From the IMG/VR virus record IMGVR_UViG_3300034117_001173, positions 1 through 53,732 of that record: a DNA stretch of 53,732 nucleotides; one strand, given 5' to 3'. Source of the DNA: a virus. The notes under the pieces were generated by a model that saw only the letters and a list, made by a program, of their open reading frames with translations, did not search any database and was not told the origin of the DNA. Below are positions 42,805 through 50,996 of this stretch, one piece after another; position 1 is the stretch's first letter, and the number at the start of each line of letters is the position of its first letter. The position numbers were made by a program, and so were the translations under genes.

Positions 42805-43712
42805 TGGGTTGTCCAACAATTCCACTTTCCTGTCTCACTCCTGAAAACATCTTTGCTGGTGTTTATCGCCCCAATTGCGGGGGATTTGCCGATCCTTCCA
42901 ATTTCAAGGCTGAAAGAGCCATATTCAATTCCCAATTTGGGGAGCTTATCAATAATTATGGGGTGGAGATTGATTATTATGTGAACACCTTCAACCCAAA
43001 GGCAATGAACTCCATCTATGGGGAACACACTCTCATGTATTGGCTCGGTCCAACAGTTATCAAAGCATATATCCAGATGGAGAATGCCTCCCCAATTTAT
43101 GCTCTGGCTGGTATGGATTCCCCCGATACTTTGACACTCTATTTACATATTGATGATTTTAATGTCAAATTTGCTGGACTTAGCGTATTTGATGGTGTTT
43201 TAAGAGATGAAAACAATAATCCCATATTAACGGAAGCAGGGGAGCAAATTATTATTGATCAGGAAAATGGTCCATGGGCTTGCGAACCCAAATCACAGGA
43301 TAAGATCAGGGTGACACCATTTGGATGTGATAGGCCGAATGGCAGGGGAGCCAAGATATTTGAGGTTACGGAAGCTCTGGATGAAGATGCCGCTGAACTC
43401 AATCCTGCAATGGGTCATTATGTTTGGAGATTGAAAGCTGTTCGTAGTGAGCATAACTTCACCACCAATGAACCAAGGGAAAATATGAATCATCAAATTG
43501 CTGATAATTCTTTCTTCGGTAAGCTGTCTTCCACGATGTTCCCAGAATTGACGGGAATGTATCCGGGTCTTTCGGCAGCATTTTTGTCGCTATCTTCTGT
43601 TCTGGATGATAACAAGATATACACCGAAAGTTCCGATGAAATCGTGCAAAGGGATGTGTTTCCTCCATCCACGGGAGGTAGTGATGGTAGTGTATATGGG
43701 AATTATTTCTAA
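42804..43712 (+). CDS. 14: neck protein, gp14-like
   Basis: A 302-aa protein. The segment INNYGVEIDYYVNTFNPKAM, then NSIYGEH, resembles T4 gp14 (256 aa) '[22 protein letters not shown]', and the following DTLTLYLHIDDF matches its beta-strand after the insertion. gp14 joins head and tail in the collar. The location, just before terminase large subunit, agrees with the T4 order 13-14-15-16-17. Similarity is moderate, so the name is probable rather than certain. The promoter for terminase overlaps its stop. Confidence 0.6.
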   Translation: MGCPTIPLSCLTPENIFAGVYRPNCGGFADPSNFKAERAIFNSQFGELINNYGVEIDYYVNTFNPKAMNSIYGEHTLMYWLGPTVIKAYIQMENASPIYALAGMDSPDTLTLYLHIDDFNVKFAGLSVFDGVLRDENNNPILTEAGEQIIIDQENGPWACEPKSQDKIRVTPFGCDRPNGRGAKIFEVTEALDEDAAELNPAMGHYVWRLKAVRSEHNFTTNEPRENMNHQIADNSFFGKLSSTMFPELTGMYPGLSAAFLSLSSVLDDNKIYTESSDEIVQRDVFPPSTGGSDGSVYGNYF

Positions 43713-43715
43713 ATA
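43708..43715 (+). promoter_or_regulatory. late promoter of the terminase N-part gene
   Basis: TCTAAATA, 6 nt, ATG (43722). It contains the TAA stop of the neck gene. Confidence 0.6.
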
Positions 43716-43721
43716 GGTAAT

Positions 43722-44081
43722 ATGGGTAGGAAAAAAGATACATATATGGGCAATCCTAATTTGCCCACAGCTAGTGCTACATTCGAATATACACCAGAGA
43801 TGGTGGCTGAGATTGCCAAGTGTCGGGATGATATTTTATATTTTGCTGAAAATTATTTCTATATCATTGAGCCGGATTTAGGTAAGATTAAAATACCGTT
43901 GTTACCATATCAGAAGCGGTTGCTGAACGCATTTAGAGATAACAGATTTAATATTGTCAACTCATCTCGTCAATCGGGAAAATGTTTTGTTGGTGATACT
44001 AAAATAAAAATACGAAACAAAAAAACAGGTGAAATAGAAGAAGTTGAAGCTGAAAAGTTTTACAATTCTATTAAAAAATAG
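43722..44081 (+). CDS. 17: terminase large subunit gp17, N-extein fused to split-intein N part
   Basis: A 119-aa product. Residues 1-87 are the start of a T4 gp17-type packaging ATPase (LPYQKRLLNAFRDNRFNIVN, then SSRQSGK). Residue 88 is Cys, and residues 88-119 are an intein N-terminal fragment with the block A pattern CFVGDTKIKIRNKKTGEIEE. The protein stops after only 32 intein residues. The break falls inside Walker A (SRQSGK then TT), so the ATPase exists only after trans-splicing with the product of 45363. No full terminase gene is present elsewhere in the window. Confidence 0.9.
   Translation: MGRKKDTYMGNPNLPTASATFEYTPEMVAEIAKCRDDILYFAENYFYIIEPDLGKIKIPLLPYQKRLLNAFRDNRFNIVNSSRQSGKCFVGDTKIKIRNKKTGEIEEVEAEKFYNSIKK
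43983..44078 (+). other. split intein, N-terminal fragment (32 aa)
   Basis: Begins with the nucleophile Cys directly after Gly-Lys of the P-loop and contains block A only. Block B is on the C fragment. This early break is like that of the AceL-TerL type of atypically split inteins, which are also in phage terminases. Confidence 0.85.
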
Positions 44082-44101
44082 ACAAATATCTAAGCGATTA
44101 G

Positions 44102-44109
44102 ACTAAATA
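44102..44109 (+). promoter_or_regulatory. late promoter of the homing endonuclease
   Basis: GACTAAATA, 5 nt, ATG (44115), 20 nt after the stop of the terminase N-part gene. Confidence 0.65.
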
Positions 44110-44114
44110 TATAC

Positions 44115-45362
44115 ATGACGAACAAAACATGTATAATTACTGGAAAATTATTGTCAGATGGAAAAAAGTGGAAGGGTTGTCATAGTAGAACCTTGTTTTT
44201 TATATATAAAGATAATAAATTTGATTTAGAAAAAACTAAAGAAGATGTTGAAAATAACTTGATATATATTGACGAGTATGATGAATATTATTCTTGTTGG
44301 AGAGCAGCATCCAGATCATTGGGAATGAGATACAATCTGAGTGAAGTTGATAAAATATCTCTCTATGAAAAATATTTTAAACCGAATAGTAAATGTAAAA
44401 AACATGATTGTAATAATCAAGTTCCTTATGATTTTTTGAAGTATAATACTTGTTGTTTGTTGCATTATAATCAAAATTTGAAAAGTTTAAAATTAAAAGA
44501 TTTTAAATACACCTGTTTAGAAGATGGGAATACATTCACAAGAATAAATCGCTTGACTAGACACCTCAAAGGTGTGCTAAACATCGATCCAGAAGATTAT
44601 TATAAAAAACATATTAAAAAATGTGATAGTGAGGGATTTTGTAAATGGTGTAAAACCCCAACACGATTTAAAAATGTGCGAGATGGATACGATAAATTTT
44701 GCTACAACACATCTTGTAATGTTTTGTGGTATAATAAACATGAAAATCGCGCTAAAAATTGCGCTGAAAAGATTAGAAAAACACATTTAATCGGGGATCG
44801 TTTACCATCTCAAGAGGGATATTGGTTAAAACGAGGACATACGCAAGAGGAGGCTTATAAAAAAGTTAGAGAAACACAAGCCACCAACGCTGTTGACTCT
44901 ATCATGGAAAGAAAGAAATGCTCATTGGAAGAAGCAGTTCAAATTAGAGCTGAAATAACCGATAAATGGTTGAAATCATTTAAGAGAATGAATTATTCAA
45001 TGATTTCACAGAAATTGTTTGTTGAGGTTTGGAAAAGAGTGAAAGATAAATATAAAAATATTTACTTCGCAACATTAAACAATGGAGAGATTGTCAACGA
45101 TGGTAAAAATCATGAGTTTAGGGTGAAAACATTTAGATCAAGTAGAAAAATAGATTTTTATATCAAAGATATTAATAAATGCATCGAATTTGACGGGACA
45201 TATTGGCATGGGAAAAAAGGTAAAGGGGCTTCTGAAGAATTATTAAGGGAAAGTGAAATAATTGGAACGTTGGGGTGTAAAGTTTTACACGTTAAAGAAA
45301 AAGATTTCAATAATGATAATGAAAAAATCATAGAAGATTGTGTAAATTTTTTAAATAGTTAA
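44115..45362 (+). CDS. free-standing Vsr/EDxHD-type homing endonuclease
   Basis: A 415-aa protein located between the two terminase halves. The C-terminal nuclease domain has RKIDFYI (Asp), CIEFDGTYWHG and LHVKEKDF, the Vsr-like fold of the homing endonuclease family described in fractured split-intein genes. The middle has zinc-finger-like Cys/His groups (FCKWCKTP ... FCYNTSCNVLWYNKH) and a RINRLTRHLKG element like MucR/Ros-type DNA-binding parts. It probably cuts intein-less terminase alleles so that the whole insert is copied in. Strongly A/T-rich compared with the flanking late genes. Its stop abuts the ATG of the terminase C part. Confidence 0.85.
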   Translation: MTNKTCIITGKLLSDGKKWKGCHSRTLFFIYKDNKFDLEKTKEDVENNLIYIDEYDEYYSCWRAASRSLGMRYNLSEVDKISLYEKYFKPNSKCKKHDCNNQVPYDFLKYNTCCLLHYNQNLKSLKLKDFKYTCLEDGNTFTRINRLTRHLKGVLNIDPEDYYKKHIKKCDSEGFCKWCKTPTRFKNVRDGYDKFCYNTSCNVLWYNKHENRAKNCAEKIRKTHLIGDRLPSQEGYWLKRGHTQEEAYKKVRETQATNAVDSIMERKKCSLEEAVQIRAEITDKWLKSFKRMNYSMISQKLFVEVWKRVKDKYKNIYFATLNNGEIVNDGKNHEFRVKTFRSSRKIDFYIKDINKCIEFDGTYWHGKKGKGASEELLRESEIIGTLGCKVLHVKEKDFNNDNEKIIEDCVNFLNS

Positions 45363-45707
45363 ATGGGGAAGATAATAGAAACCATAGATTTAACTGATTA
45401 TGAAATCTGGACTGATTCTGGGTGGCACGACTTGACACATCTTCATAAGACAGTTGTATATGATGTGTGGATCATAACAACCGAAAATTTTCAATTAGAA
45501 TGTGCTGATGAACACATAATTTTTAAAAATTCTGATTATGAGGAAGTTTTTTGTGAGAACTTGAATATTGGTGATAATATTTGGACGGAAAACGGTCTTG
45601 AAGCGGTTTTATCAATTGTTAAGACTGATCGTAGCGAACATATGTATGATGCGACTGTGGATAGCGAAGATCATCGAATTTTCACTAACGGTATTTTAAG
45701 TCATAAT
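45363..45707 (+). other. split intein, C-terminal fragment (115 aa)
   Basis: Residues 1-115 of the second terminase gene. It includes block B (ELECADEHIIF region, His present), block F (MYDATVDSEDHRIF) and block G ending ILSHN, followed by Thr as the +1 residue. Penultimate His and terminal Asn are intact, so splicing should be active. Confidence 0.85.
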
Positions 45708-47225
45708 ACCACATGTCTAACCATATTAGCCCTACATGAGACTTGTTTTAAGGATTATAGAAACACTATAATCGTTGCCAACAAAGAAGACACCGCGAAA
45801 ATGATTTTCAAGCGTGTTAAATTAGCATATGAGGAATTGCCCAACTGGTTGAAACCCGGAGTTAAAACATGGGGTCAGGAAAGCACCGAATTTTCAAATG
45901 GTTCAACCATCGGGATTGCAACGACAAGTAGTTCAACTGCGAGAGGAAGCACTATTCAATGCCTCTTACTTGACGAATTGGCGTGGGTTGATCCCGATAG
46001 TTTGGTGGTTGATTTCATGTCTTCTGTCCTACCAACCATCTCCAGAGCAAAAACATCTAAAATATTAATCACTTCAACTCCCAGAGGAAAAGATAATGTT
46101 TTTTATAAAATGTTTGCAGATGCGTTGAAAAAAGGAACTGATGGGTGGAACGAATTTCACGCTGAAACGATCACTTGGGAGGAGGTTCCGGGTAGAGACG
46201 AAGCATGGAAATTGAAAGAAGTTGCTCGTTTAGGATCATATGAATTATTTGAACAGGAATATAATTGTCATTTTGTTGACAATAGTGAATCATCGTTGGA
46301 CGAAGCATTGTTCGATAAACTTAAAATCGATTGTAAATCACCGCTCCACATCCTAAAAGACGGTAAATATAAAATATGGGAAGAATACGATCCTGAGAAA
46401 ATTTATGTCATTGGGGGAGACGTTTCCGAAGGTGTTGGGTTGGATGCATCGGTTTTAGAAGTCCTTGACATCACAAACCCCAATGAAATCATACAAGTTG
46501 CGGAATATCATAATAATATGATCGGCCCATCGGAATTTACCAATGAAGTTGTTGAAATTTGTGGGCATTGGGGAAATCCTTTGCTATTGATTGAGCGCAA
46601 CAACCAAGGAACCGGAGTATGTGATACCTTGGCAAATACACATATGTATCAGAATCTTGTGTCTTGGGGAGCCAAGGAAGCGCATAAGAACAAGCAGAAT
46701 GGTATGATTTCCCACATCAATACCAAATACAAAGCGGTTCTCAACCAGAGATATTTTGTTAATGAAGCGCAATCCGTGGTATTCCGCAACATCGACACCC
46801 TGAAAGAGTTCAAGATGTTTGTGCGATACCCAAATGGCTCTTGGAAAGCCAAAAGCGGGGAACATGATGACCGTGTGATGGCATTTGTGTGGGCATTGAT
46901 GGCTCTTTACAAGGATATAACTGAATTGTATTTTGAAGTTGAGGAACTGGATGATTGTGATAAACCTTTACGCATAAAACCCATCGATCAGGGACTTCAC
47001 CAATACAGATCATCCACATCCATATACACGAATGAAGAGGTTGACAAGATTGAACACTCCAATATCTCTCCCATGCTCTTCGGAGGATTTGGGGGTGCTG
47101 CTGTCAGCGACATGGCGGAATTGGAAGCTGCGGGTTGGGCTTTACCAGATCATTCGGTGTTCTCCAATCCCGAAAGGAATATCTCTTCCGATCAATGGGC
47201 AGCAATGGAGAAATATTTCGGTTGA
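45363..47225 (+). CDS. 17: terminase large subunit gp17, intein C part fused to C-extein
   Basis: A 620-aa product: 115 aa of intein followed by 505 aa of terminase. The extein starts TTCLTILALHE, which completes Walker A. Walker B is QCLLLDELAWVD, and the coupling motif is LITSTPRG. The RuvC-like nuclease has GGDVSEGVGLD, LLIERNNQG and GEHDDRVMA, giving the three acidic residues. The joined protein would be 592 aa against 610 for T4 gp17. It packages DNA into the prohead and cuts it at the end. The gene starts immediately at the endonuclease stop codon with no promoter of its own. Confidence 0.92.
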   Translation: MGKIIETIDLTDYEIWTDSGWHDLTHLHKTVVYDVWIITTENFQLECADEHIIFKNSDYEEVFCENLNIGDNIWTENGLEAVLSIVKTDRSEHMYDATVDSEDHRIFTNGILSHNTTCLTILALHETCFKDYRNTIIVANKEDTAKMIFKRVKLAYEELPNWLKPGVKTWGQESTEFSNGSTIGIATTSSSTARGSTIQCLLLDELAWVDPDSLVVDFMSSVLPTISRAKTSKILITSTPRGKDNVFYKMFADALKKGTDGWNEFHAETITWEEVPGRDEAWKLKEVARLGSYELFEQEYNCHFVDNSESSLDEALFDKLKIDCKSPLHILKDGKYKIWEEYDPEKIYVIGGDVSEGVGLDASVLEVLDITNPNEIIQVAEYHNNMIGPSEFTNEVVEICGHWGNPLLLIERNNQGTGVCDTLANTHMYQNLVSWGAKEAHKNKQNGMISHINTKYKAVLNQRYFVNEAQSVVFRNIDTLKEFKMFVRYPNGSWKAKSGEHDDRVMAFVWALMALYKDITELYFEVEELDDCDKPLRIKPIDQGLHQYRSSTSIYTNEEVDKIEHSNISPMLFGGFGGAAVSDMAELEAAGWALPDHSVFSNPERNISSDQWAAMEKYFG

Positions 47226-48564: not shown

Positions 48565-48601
48565 TGTGTTTTATAGAATAACAAATTTTCAGCCATAAAT
48601 T

Positions 48602-48614: not shown

Positions 48615-50996
48615 ATGGCAACACGCACAATAAATTCGGCTGGGGTGGAGATATTTGAGAGAGATTTAAGTCTCGTCGCACAGGCGAATGTAGGGACTAA
48701 TATTTTCGTAGCAGGTTATACACCTCAAGGATATTCTGATGAGGTTATCAAAATCACTTCCAGAGACGAACTGGAAGCAATCTATGGAACCCCAACCAAT
48801 AGCGCAGAACGTTATTTCTATTACACTGTGAGGGAACTCCTGAATTCTCCCGCAAACATCTACACTTTCCGTCTTCCTTATGGTTCCGGTTCTGGTGATG
48901 GATTTGGAAGCCAACATTCTGCCCTTGTTTATCCCGTTGTTGCCGCAACCCCCACCGGAGTTACCACAACGAGAAACCTCGATCTCTCCGCTGGAACCTA
49001 TTTCCTCGGAAAACCCTATCAGATTACCCTATCGGAAACGGAATTTGCCCAAGCCATGGAAGGAACCCTCTTTGATTGGTCTGCAACGGCATCTCCCCTT
49101 TCCTCTTTTTCCTCTGTAAAGGCAAATACCCTTTCTGCCATGGGCGGTGCTGGTATCATTGTGCTTGATAAAGCCCAAACCACGATCAATAGCCAATTTG
49201 AAGGTTATTATGTCGGTATCGCAGATAACGTAAATCTCAATCCAGCATCCAATTTTGATGCAATCACCCGCGCATATACCACAAGCCTTACTGCTGGTGT
49301 GATTTCGGATTTCACGCAGATTCCAAACGGAACGCTCCAATTCAATCTCTCCGCTACCGATGGAGGTGCCACTGGTAGTATTTCCCAAGTCATGGAGAAC
49401 CTTACCGACTACAACATTGCCGATAGGGAAGACGATGACCTTCTTAACGTTGGTGTCTTCAAGCTCCGTAAGAGTGTATATGCAACGGAAGCATTCAAGC
49501 TGGATTATGTGCTTGATGACCGTATCGTGGGTTCCATTGATACTTTCAGAACTCAACTCAATCCAAATGGTGGACCATCCGTTCCATTCTTCCTTGAAAC
49601 TCAGGATACCAATTCCCGCAATGTGGAAATCATGGTCAATCCATACATCTCCAACAAGTTCACCGAATCCTCGCTGGATTCTTCGGGTAATCCCACCAAG
49701 AAAATCCGTGTGGTAACTGAGAGCTTGCTTGCCACTCAATATACAAGCATCTCCGCTGCATTAGGTATTACAACCACTACCTCTACCGCCTCCGCTCTTA
49801 GTTCTAATTTAACAGTAGCTAACACATATGCACTTTCGGGTCTTTCTGAAAGCGTTGGAGTCGCAAATGCCCTGTATCCTCTGGGTGTTTACAATCCTGT
49901 CAAGATCACCCAAAAAATCATCGGCAATGTTCCAACCAAGATCAACCGCGCTCTGGAAAGCATCAAGAATGATGAAATCTATGACATTGATGTGGTTGTC
50001 GAAGGTGGTCTGGGAACGATCTTCACGATGACATCTGCTGCGGGAACCGCATATTATGACGATACCCTTTATAACAGTGCGTTGAAGGCTAAGGTGGACT
50101 CCCTGAGAACATCCCAAGATATTTTCTACAATACGGTAGCAACCGATCTTCGTGCCAATTACAGCGCGATCTTCAACCAATTTGAGAACTTCTGTAACCT
50201 CCCCTCCAATACTGGTGGTCGTGGCGACTGCGTATTCATTGCTGATCCTATCCGTCACATTCTTGTGACTGGAAGAAACACCAAGATTCTTTCTGATAGA
50301 AACAAGAACTTCCAAACAGATGTTTATTGGGCTATGAGACACCAATTCGAATTGGAAAACACTTCCTATGCTGCAACTTATGGAAACTGGGTGCAAGCCT
50401 ATGATGATTTCACAGGTGAAAAGGTTTGGCTTCCATTCTCTGGATACCAAGCTGCTATCATGGCACGTAGCGATGCTGCGGAATTCCCATGGTCTGCTCC
50501 TGCTGGATTCACCCGTGGTCTGGTGACAAACGCTCTGGACATCGCAATCAATCCGAATCAGAAACAGCGTGATGAGTTCTACAAGATCAACATCAACCCT
50601 GTTATGTTCTCCCCCGCCCAAGGTGTGGTTGTCTTTGGTCAAAAGACCATGAGCCGCAAACCAAGCGCATTTGATCGCATCAATGTCCGTAGGTTGTTCC
50701 TTGCTCTGGAAAGACCTACCAAGAAAGCTGCCCAATTCTTCGTGTTTGAACCCAACAACGAATTCACACGCACTCGCTTGGTAAACACGCTTACGCCGAT
50801 TTTCGAATTTGCGAAACAGAACGGTGGTTGCTATGATTATCTGATCGTTTGCGACGAAAGGAATAATACTCCACAAGTCATTGATACCAATGAGTTGAAG
50901 GTTGATATTCTGATCAAACCAACGAGAACCGCTGAGTTTATTTTGATAACTTTTACGGCTACCCGTAGTGATGCGAATCTGGAAGAATTGATTTAA
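48615..50996 (+). CDS. 18: tail sheath protein gp18
   Basis: 793 aa from the ATG at 48615 (promoter spacing; an in-frame TTG at 48600 precedes the promoter). The N-terminus SAGVEIFERDLSLVAQANVG, then TNIFVAGYTPQGYSDEV, is the contractile sheath signature. The C-terminus has the conserved VFEPNNEFTRTRLVNTLTPI, then VCDERNNTPQVIDTNELKVD and IKPTRTAEFILITF, which form the intersubunit beta-sheet handshake. Longer than T4 gp18 (659 aa) through insertion in the outer domains (~100-400). It is more G/C-rich and regular in codon use than neighbours, as expected for an abundant protein. Followed by a terminator. Confidence 0.95.
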   Translation: MATRTINSAGVEIFERDLSLVAQANVGTNIFVAGYTPQGYSDEVIKITSRDELEAIYGTPTNSAERYFYYTVRELLNSPANIYTFRLPYGSGSGDGFGSQHSALVYPVVAATPTGVTTTRNLDLSAGTYFLGKPYQITLSETEFAQAMEGTLFDWSATASPLSSFSSVKANTLSAMGGAGIIVLDKAQTTINSQFEGYYVGIADNVNLNPASNFDAITRAYTTSLTAGVISDFTQIPNGTLQFNLSATDGGATGSISQVMENLTDYNIADREDDDLLNVGVFKLRKSVYATEAFKLDYVLDDRIVGSIDTFRTQLNPNGGPSVPFFLETQDTNSRNVEIMVNPYISNKFTESSLDSSGNPTKKIRVVTESLLATQYTSISAALGITTTTSTASALSSNLTVANTYALSGLSESVGVANALYPLGVYNPVKITQKIIGNVPTKINRALESIKNDEIYDIDVVVEGGLGTIFTMTSAAGTAYYDDTLYNSALKAKVDSLRTSQDIFYNTVATDLRANYSAIFNQFENFCNLPSNTGGRGDCVFIADPIRHILVTGRNTKILSDRNKNFQTDVYWAMRHQFELENTSYAATYGNWVQAYDDFTGEKVWLPFSGYQAAIMARSDAAEFPWSAPAGFTRGLVTNALDIAINPNQKQRDEFYKININPVMFSPAQGVVVFGQKTMSRKPSAFDRINVRRLFLALERPTKKAAQFFVFEPNNEFTRTRLVNTLTPIFEFAKQNGGCYDYLIVCDERNNTPQVIDTNELKVDILIKPTRTAEFILITFTATRSDANLEELI

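What the first reader, a model, noticed from the sequence alone, without database searches (positions are those of the whole stretch)
43722..47225. Terminase large subunit fractured in its P-loop by an atypically split intein, with an endonuclease gene between the halves
The ATPase Walker A motif is cut between Lys (end of SRQSGK) and Thr (start of TTCLTI). The upstream gene ends in a 32-residue intein N fragment. The downstream gene begins with a 115-residue intein C fragment that holds blocks B, F and G and ends HN, with Thr at +1. Between them lies a Vsr/EDxHD-type nuclease gene with its own late promoter. Fractured genes of this design (split intein plus this nuclease family) were described from environmental sequences. 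Inteins broken this early, with block B on the C part, are rare; the AceL-TerL type is the known parallel. DNA packaging would depend on trans-splicing, so the timing of head filling could be set by how fast the two halves meet.
Basis: partly seen in the sequence, partly recalled or inferred. Interest (0 to 1): 0.92.

Follow-up and report, generated by a model that had tools for sequence, protein, structure and literature searches.

The report
Packaging-motor gene broken by mobile intein
In this virus of bacteria the gene for the DNA-packaging motor is cut in two at its energy-binding site by a self-splicing protein element that carries its own DNA-cutting gene; related viruses show the same spot empty, filled by a one-piece version, or broken, so the stages of this breakage can be compared.

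Summary
The T4-type terminase large subunit is encoded as an N-half (87 aa extein, 32 aa intein N), a 415-aa nuclease gene and a C-half (115 aa intein C, 505 aa extein), broken between Lys and Thr of Walker A. The nuclease has a Vsr/EDxHD-type catalytic domain (VIA-align Z 10.5 to I-Bth0305I). Eleven other contigs match at 100% DNA identity; nine divergent contigs and one 462-kb phage record repeat the layout.

The comparison with AceL-TerL needs correction: Cat, the consensus of AceL and GOS, most resembles inteins at another TerL site. The P-loop site is known for one-piece inteins; fractured genes with this nuclease family are known. The head-filling timing idea lacks support: all three genes carry the same late-promoter-like motif, and one-piece sister alleles exist.

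New here: in near-identical TerL alleles the site is empty, holds a one-piece LAGLIDADG-type intein, or is fractured; one-piece sisters nest among fractured ones; in some pairs the three-part element is younger at silent sites than its host gene; a relative sits in a DnaB-type helicase P-loop. Best reading: a mobile fractured-gene element kept tolerable by trans-splicing. Splicing and cutting were not tested.

The parts
43722..44081 (+). terminase N-half gene (119 aa): 87 aa N-extein + 32 aa intein N
   Evidence: ORF; phrog_5989 4.4e-28 on residues 4-90
43722..43982 (+). N-extein, ending in Walker A SRQSGK
   Evidence: in the intein-free relatives printed the frame runs straight on to a Thr or Ser codon
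43983..44078 (+). intein N fragment, 32 aa, Cys1, block A only
   Evidence: 60% identical in L009 (30 aa), 46% in L060 (28 aa); alignments
43709..43715 (+). CTAAATA late-promoter-like motif upstream of the N-half
44103..44109 (+). CTAAATA late-promoter-like motif upstream of the nuclease gene; the same motif stands before the nuclease gene of L009
44115..45362 (+). free-standing homing-type endonuclease gene, 415 aa
   Evidence: ORF; 11-member family A4
44505..44612 (+). zinc-finger-like region (residues ~131-166), presumed DNA binding
   Evidence: ROS_MUCR 0.013, under its cut-off; C2H2 chains with profile A4
44985..45359 (+). Vsr/EDxHD-type catalytic domain (residues 291-415)
   Evidence: AF2 model; VIA-align Z 10.5 to I-Bth0305I 3r3p, 9.4 to Vsr 1cw0
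45351..45357 (+). TTAAATA motif; TAAATA starts 11 nt before the ATG of the C-half
45363..47225 (+). terminase C-half gene (620 aa), ATG directly after the nuclease stop codon
45363..45707 (+). intein C fragment, 115 aa, with blocks B, F and G, ends SHN
   Evidence: intein_Cterm over its cut-off; VidaL 6e-5 and CatC 0.0061 by phmmer
45708..47222 (+). C-extein, 505 aa, starts Thr(+1); rest of the ATPase domain and RNase H-like nuclease domain
   Evidence: Terminase_6N and Terminase_6C

Best explanation
This is a mobile fractured-gene element made of three parts: intein N, a free-standing Vsr/EDxHD-type homing endonuclease gene, and intein C. It sits between Lys and Thr of the terminase Walker A motif. 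The two half-proteins are made separately; the intein parts join into a Hint domain and splice in trans (Cys1, Asn115, Thr+1), giving a 592-aa motor with an intact P-loop. The nuclease cuts intein-free terminase alleles of co-infecting phages, and repair copies all three parts into them. Shown: anatomy, modelled fold of the nuclease domain and of a one-piece sister intein, empty and occupied alleles, purifying selection in relatives, and in some pairs lower silent divergence of the element than of its host gene. Inferred: splicing, cutting, and homing as the cause of the spread.
For: Layout and splice residues. One terminase found in a 177.6-kb contig with the identical locus. The one-piece sister intein of L102 folds with pLDDT 90.9 and matches inteins in the PDB, VidaL first at 2.6e-11; its weakest block (residues 31-40, mean pLDDT 59) is where the window intein is broken, after residue 32. 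Nuclease fold. Near-identical TerL alleles: L025 empty, L020/L021/L041 one-piece LAGLIDADG-type intein, L009 fractured; L009 is 99-100% identical to L025, L020 and L041 over the 305 bp before the junction and 91-100% (150-bp bins) over the 1.5 kb after it. dN/dS: nuclease 0.10-0.25 in the four pairs that are not saturated, intein C 0.07-0.10 in five pairs. Silent divergence of intein N + nuclease + intein C is below that of the exteins in 5 of 5 pairs of L060/L076/L079/L080, all intervals clear of 0 (L060-L079 barely, 0.008-0.191); in L076-L079 two downstream genes (pS 0.56, 0.60) behave like the exteins (0.62), not like the element (0.31). L076-L080 shows lower divergence in the first 120 codons next to the junction.
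Against: No splicing or cutting was tested. The five pairs share four contigs and are not independent. L060-L077 shows no deficit (nuclease 0.42, C-half gene 0.41, neighbours 0.32 and 0.45), L077-L079 little (nuclease 0.57, others 0.62-0.65). Window-L009 is saturated in the nuclease. The gradient next to the junction is seen in L076-L080 only; the other pairs lack it. So recent mobility is shown in relatives, not for the window copy itself. Intein N has higher ratios (0.23-0.49, on 32-35 codons). His365 of the nuclease lies in a weakly modelled stretch (364-370).
Confidence: 0.8

Rival explanations
1. A regulatory device: the break sets the time of head filling through the rate at which the halves meet.
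For: Neither half alone has a whole Walker A motif. Nuclease and intein C are under purifying selection in relatives.
Against: One-piece sisters (L102, L109) and intein-free alleles occur in the same gene. All three genes carry the same late-type motif. Occupancy differs among near-identical alleles.
Confidence: 0.06
2. The nuclease gene lies in a self-splicing RNA intron, so that a one-piece intein is made from spliced mRNA; an intein plus an intron in TerL was proposed for Campylobacter phage IBB_35 (PMC3322345, passages).
For: A similar layout was read so by those authors.
Against: No Rfam match at gathering level in 7 sources including the window; in 43500-46000 only a sub-threshold snoRNA hit at E 2.2. 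Only 33 bp lie between the N-half stop codon and the nuclease ATG, and none between the nuclease stop codon and the C-half ATG. The N-half has its own stop codon and the C-half its own start codon.
Confidence: 0.03
3. A two-chain terminase: the halves work without splicing, like the genes-in-pieces ribonucleotide reductase split by a homing endonuclease.
For: Such a case is mentioned in PMC10448857 (passage) and cited in PMC3322345 (reference list).
Against: The splice residues are kept: Cys1 in 21 of 21 rows with an intein N, a final HN in 22 of 23 rows with an intein C (L110 ends SQ). The break is inside the P-loop, and one-piece sisters are joined in frame.
Confidence: 0.05
4. A dead relic or an assembly artefact.
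For: Metagenome contigs; the silent-site data do not show recent movement of the window copy.
Against: 100.000% identity in 11 of 11 contigs and low dN/dS in relatives. It is the only terminase found.
Confidence: 0.02

Closest known systems
AceL-TerL, GOS-TerL and their consensus Cat (atypical split TerL inteins)
   Same: Terminase large subunit; short N fragment (25, 37 and 30 aa against 32 here) and long C part (104, 115 and 104 aa against 115 here); sizes from PMC11766414 (passages). Block B on the C part is seen for CatC in the alignment.
   Different: Cys at +1 there, Thr here. CatC matches the intein at the downstream REFE|C site of L109 at 1.3e-15, those at two sites beside Walker B at 1.1e-7 and 2.4e-9, this intein at 0.0061. 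A different insertion site and subfamily is most likely; AceL and GOS themselves were not compared.
VidaL split intein (PDB 6vgv)
   Same: Best solved relative by sequence (6e-5) and by fold of the L102 sister intein (2.6e-11).
   Different: 22% identical to the L102 intein in the fold comparison; its host gene and break point were not checked here.
Fractured genes of Dassa et al. 2009 (title seen in reference lists only; content recalled)
   Same: Host gene broken at a split intein with a free-standing nuclease gene of a new family between the halves.
   Different: Here the break in the intein is early; recalled examples are broken at the usual place.
One-piece TerL P-loop inteins: mycobacteriophage TerL1-a (PMC5050341, passages) and the Ackermannviridae intein (e.g. 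Klebsiella phage Magnus, MN045230)
   Same: Lys|Thr position. The Ackermannviridae intein is homologous: Klebsiella phage Menlow 42.3% over 90% of the C part; Magnus aligns with it.
   Different: One piece; no nuclease gene between halves in the Ackermannviridae records opened. Whether TerL1-a is of the same intein family was not tested.
Campylobacter phages F379 (MT932329) and IBB_35 (HM246721)
   Same: F379: terminase halves with a nuclease gene between them, homologous intein. IBB_35: one-piece homologous intein plus further interruptions downstream.
   Different: Insertion three residues earlier (PRQ|SSKS); the F379 nuclease hits T5orf172 at 0.0043, under the cut-off, with a GIY-YIG look by eye.
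I-Bth0305I (EDxHD homing endonuclease, PDB 3r3p)
   Same: Catalytic-domain fold, Z 10.5, 94 residues, 2.8 A.
   Different: 19% identity; the PDB entry calls it a mobile intron protein, so not a fractured-gene nuclease.

Membership tests
Split intein (class 1) | Cys/Ser/Thr at 1, block B His, block F/G with His-Asn end, Cys/Ser/Thr at +1 | tested here: met
   Cys1; CADEH; MYDATVDSEDHRIFTNGILSHN; Thr+1; block names recalled
Split intein (class 1) | Hint fold | tested here: met
   Model of the one-piece sister L102, pLDDT 90.9; 65 PDB matches at E<=0.001, the top ones inteins.
Split intein (class 1) | trans-splicing activity | not testable with these tools
   needs co-expression
Atypical split TerL inteins (AceL/GOS/Cat) | short N part without block B, long C part with block B | tested here: met
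   32 and 115 aa; comparison sizes from PMC11766414
Atypical split TerL inteins (AceL/GOS/Cat) | Cys at +1 and same insertion site | tested here: not met
   Thr+1 at the P-loop; CatC best matches the intein at the REFE|C site. The native site of AceL/GOS was not read in a paper, so the site half of this row is indirect
Fractured gene with free-standing nuclease (Dassa 2009, definition recalled) | host gene broken at the intein, nuclease gene between the halves | tested here: met
Fractured gene with free-standing nuclease (Dassa 2009, definition recalled) | uninterrupted homologous gene elsewhere | tested here: met
   28 of 41 scorable loci are empty at the site
EDxHD/Vsr homing endonuclease | Vsr-like catalytic fold | tested here: met
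   Z 10.5 to 3r3p, 9.4 to 1cw0, 10.6 to 3hrl over residues 291-415; Foldseek alone gives 3r3p E 0.095, probability 0.98
EDxHD/Vsr homing endonuclease | sequence-level kinship | tested here: inconclusive
   profile A4 to 3r3p E 0.033; 10 of 11 members hit REase_MTES_1575 at E<=0.1, the window protein under its cut-off
EDxHD/Vsr homing endonuclease | namesake catalytic residues, position by position | not tested
   E334, D347, E358, H365 and E395 are invariant in 11 but were not mapped to I-Bth0305I
EDxHD/Vsr homing endonuclease | cuts intein-free alleles | not testable with these tools
   needs a cleavage assay
T4-type terminase large subunit | Terminase_6N and 6C domains | tested here: met
   both over their cut-offs in the C-half; N-half phrog_5989
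Group I/II intron with ORF | ribozyme core | tested here: not met
   no Rfam match at gathering level, none of an intron family up to E 5 in 43500-46000

The most novel reading that the evidence does not exclude
A three-gene mobile element (intein N, EDxHD-type nuclease, intein C) that homes into P-loops of phage motor genes. It competes for one site with LAGLIDADG-type inteins, has a relative in the P-loop of a DnaB-type replicative helicase, and can pass back and forth between fractured and one-piece states, so that natural split inteins are a reversible stage of intein life and not an end point.
Probability: 0.45. Interest if true: 0.78.

Novelty: new variant of a known kind. Interest (0 to 1): 0.62.

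Why it matters
How inteins come to be split in nature, and how a gene survives being broken, is open to question. Here one site in one gene shows the empty state, a one-piece LAGLIDADG-type intein and the fractured state in near-identical alleles, and one-piece and fractured sisters of the same intein in three lineages, one of them in cultured phages (Campylobacter phages CPt10 and F379; CJLB-12 lacks the nuclease gene). That makes origin and reversal of gene fracture testable at the bench. It also offers an early-split intein with Thr at +1, of possible use for protein labelling if it proves fast, and suggests that a phage can stake its packaging motor on a selfish element.

Tried and rejected
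RNA intron between the halves: rejected. A second terminase gene: not found in the window record or the 177.6-kb contig; the completeness of that contig is not given, so this is not proof. Cellular genomes: one scan with the nuclease alignment found no relative among 219 pattern matches. The single nuclease against the PDB found only a zinc finger at 0.83; the profile listed 40 chains up to E 10, 3r3p at 0.033 and the others zinc-finger or similar DNA-binding proteins by name. Foldseek alone ranked 3r3p 17th; VIA-align put it second, level with 3hrl, a putative endonuclease. The model has pTM 0.35 and weak stretches inside the domain (323-332, 364-370). Alignment A5 placed three intein N rows wrongly; it was dropped for A6. 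The short resemblance between the linker of one-piece L109 and the DNA after the N-half stop codon of L077 is too short to tell insertion from deletion, and the trees are unrooted for this question. The intein tree has 23 rows (L084, without a C part, was dropped) and weak deep branches (4 of 20 starred; the fork that holds L109 with the L060 group is 93/93, not starred). In the TerL tree L078, L110, L082, L083, Magnus and L102 are flagged as long branches, and it has SH-aLRT support only. CJLB-12 may hold a sequencing error; it was not checked. Papers not held: (Dassa 2009 and I-Bth0305I by PMC id; two DOIs recalled for the GOS-TerL and VidaL papers), so what they contain is recalled. Not in print, as far as seen: the full-text searches in the open library listed no paper that by title or abstract start treats a P-loop-site split TerL intein with an EDxHD gene; lists were capped (for example 20 of 28, 20 of 127, 20 of 84, 12 of 27), and most subscription papers are missing there.
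Full report
What is there. The window holds a T4-type phage segment with the terminase large subunit in three genes: 43722-44081, 44115-45362 and 45363-47225. The first carries 87 aa of terminase ending SRQSGK, then 32 aa starting with Cys. The third starts with 115 aa ending SHN, followed by Thr and 505 aa of terminase. Profiles place both halves in one terminase family (phrog_5989 and others; Terminase_6N and 6C in the C-half), and intein_Cterm reaches its cut-off. One terminase was found in the window record and one in the 177,639-bp contig that carries the identical locus. Eleven of eleven further contigs compared match at 100.000%, five over the whole 3504 bp and six over 1033-3320 bp.

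The nuclease. The middle protein has a zinc-finger-like middle part and a C-terminal catalytic domain. Ten of eleven family members hit the Pfam model REase_MTES_1575 at E 0.1 or better (the window protein is under the cut-off). The profile finds I-Bth0305I only at E 0.033. The AlphaFold2 model (mean pLDDT 71.5, pTM 0.35; most of the last 120 residues well modelled, weak at 323-332 and 364-370) matches 3hrl at Z 10.6, I-Bth0305I at 10.5 and Vsr at 9.4, all within residues 291-415. E334, D347, E358, H365 and E395 are invariant in eleven sequences. The name EDxHD is therefore supported by fold; the namesake residues were not mapped.

The intein. The C part is nearest to VidaL (6e-5) and CatC (0.0061) among solved chains. 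A homologous intein in one piece, in contig L102, folds with pLDDT 90.9 and pTM 0.81; its weakest block, residues 31-40, coincides with the break after residue 32 in the window. Foldseek gives 65 PDB matches at E 0.001 or better, VidaL first.

Relatives at the same site. The first scan gave 47 loci. Of these, 41 show both flanks of the site: 9 are fractured with a nuclease gene (8 identical to the window, and L009), 4 hold a one-piece intein of 350-356 aa with Ala at position 1 (L018, L020, L021, L041; the LAGLIDADG domain was tested for L018 only), and 28 are empty; 6 could not be scored. The scan started from window peptides, so these are not population frequencies. Further scans with alignments (L060 already) gave fractured copies in L060, L076, L077, L078, L079, L080, L082 and L083, N-half plus nuclease in L084, C-half plus nuclease in L107 and L108 (cut by the contig end), and one-piece copies in L102 (759-codon frame) and L109 (986-codon frame with three inteins). 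Loci L085-L094 hold only distant nuclease relatives and were not studied.

Cultured and named phages. The intein C part finds 308 of 50,697 phage records at E 0.001 (40 rows seen). Twelve phage records were opened: one-piece in Magnus, Kuja, VP-1, VPALA, CPt10 and IBB_35 (6); fractured with a nuclease gene in F379, CJLB-13 and the metagenomic LR756500 (3); fractured without one in CJLB-12 (1); C-half without its N-half nearby in SCTP-2 (1); not readable in KFM-TASP06 (1). CJLB-12 and F379 are 99.8-99.9% identical on both sides of the missing nuclease gene. In the Campylobacter phages the insertion lies three residues earlier in the P-loop.

Mobility. L009 (fractured), L020, L021 and L041 (LAGLIDADG-type intein) and L025 (empty) have near-identical terminases (path lengths from L009 of 0.002-0.004 in the TerL tree). 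L009 is 99-100% identical in DNA to L025, L020 and L041 over the 305 bp before the junction that it holds and 91-100% over the 1.5 kb after it. L018 (LAGLIDADG) and L040 (empty) are a second such pair. One-piece inteins nest among fractured ones: L102 with L009 (96/90), L109 in the L060 group (93/93), CPt10 with F379 (100/100). Parsimony needs five changes of state and starred branches force three; the tree cannot tell gain from loss. In five of five pairs among L060, L076, L079 and L080 the element has fewer silent differences than the exteins, for example 0.31 against 0.62 in L076-L079, where two neighbouring genes stand at 0.56 and 0.60; the pairs are not independent, and L060-L079 is marginal. 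L060-L077 shows no such gap, L077-L079 little, and window-L009 cannot be judged. A relative with 51% identity in intein C lies in the P-loop (GKTNVGK|T) of a DnaB-like replicative helicase in L106; of the nuclease a 27-residue remnant was found there, at E 0.008.

Expression. TAAATA stands shortly before the ATG of an ORF of 40 aa or more in 21 of 66 occurrences in the window; other orders of the same six letters give 2-6, apart from AATAAT, 16, which overlaps it. All three genes have it, at 11 or 12 nt. It looks like a T4-type late promoter (recalled: TATAAATA) with almost no leader. Nothing suggests a timing difference between the halves.

Comparison with what is known. TerL is a known intein hotspot, and Lys|Thr of its P-loop is a known site in mycobacteriophages (PMC5050341, passages). 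A TerL intein is noted for Salmonella phage Mooltan (PMC6486243, passage) and for IBB_35, whose authors saw an intein plus an intron with a nuclease gene (PMC3322345, passages). Atypical split TerL inteins are known (AceL, GOS; PMC11766414, passages), with Cys at +1. Their consensus Cat matches the intein at the REFE|C site further down the gene at 1.3e-15. Fractured genes with a new nuclease family are known to me by title and recall. The window thus joins known features in a way not found in the papers searched, which makes it a new variant of a known kind.

Judgement. Mobile fractured-gene element with trans-splicing: 0.8. Timing device: 0.06. Two-chain enzyme without splicing: 0.05. RNA intron: 0.03. 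Relic or artefact: 0.02.

Noticed in passing
L078:301-5464: One terminase with what look like four inteins: P-loop (fractured with nuclease gene), before Walker B (one piece), after Walker B (fractured, no nuclease gene) and a fourth downstream (one piece): three polypeptides for one protein.
   Followed up: partly
L109:4605-7562: A single 986-codon frame encodes a terminase with three one-piece mini-inteins, at the P-loop, after Walker B and at REFE|C.
   Followed up: partly
L108:1-3654: Terminase broken twice: at the P-loop with a Vsr-type nuclease gene and downstream with a different ORF, HNH-like by eye (Pfam gave only DUF7487, under its cut-off).
   Followed up: partly
L012:907-4042, L035, L027: Close relatives of the window's terminase (L012: 89.5% N-extein, 93-94% C-extein) are empty at the P-loop but interrupted before Walker B (STIQ|CLLLDE), with GIY-YIG genes in L012 and L035; in L027 an ORF without Pfam match runs on in frame into intein C and C-extein.
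   Followed up: partly
L106:4161-6149: Relative of this intein split in the P-loop of a DnaB-like replicative helicase; only a 27-residue remnant of the nuclease end was found between the halves.
   Followed up: partly
L084:2684-4621: N-half and nuclease gene are followed by other genes; no C-half was found (tblastn in the locus; Pfam profile in the 14.7-kb contig).
   Followed up: partly
L110:4558-6444: The intein C part of the 462-kb phage record LR756500 ends SSQ instead of SHN before Thr: a Gln-ending split intein.
   Followed up: no
L018, L020, L021, L041: The 350-356-aa inteins at the same P-loop site start with Ala instead of Cys (KALALDTP), so they probably use another splicing class.
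   Followed up: no
L113:1976-5321 (Vibrio phage VP-1): One-piece P-loop intein; the frame then runs into a GIY-YIG-looking stretch near the REFE|C-type site, and a separate 'terminase like family protein' gene follows: probably an unannotated fractured terminase in a cultured phage.
   Followed up: no
L112:2956-3882 (Salicola phage SCTP-2): C-half without an adjacent N-half; it ends in another split-intein-like N part before Walker B, so the terminase may be in three or more unlinked pieces; the other pieces were not located.
   Followed up: no
window, 21 places, e.g. 33468, 43710, 44104, 45352, 48604: NTAAATA about 11 nt before ATG recurs through the window on both strands: a late-promoter-like motif with almost no leader. 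It suggests that the sheath gene starts at 48615 (ATG), not at 48600 (TTG).
   Followed up: partly
L009:4614-5429: An extra 271-aa ORF with a GIY-YIG-like look by eye lies downstream of the tail-tube-like gene; no PHROG match.
   Followed up: no
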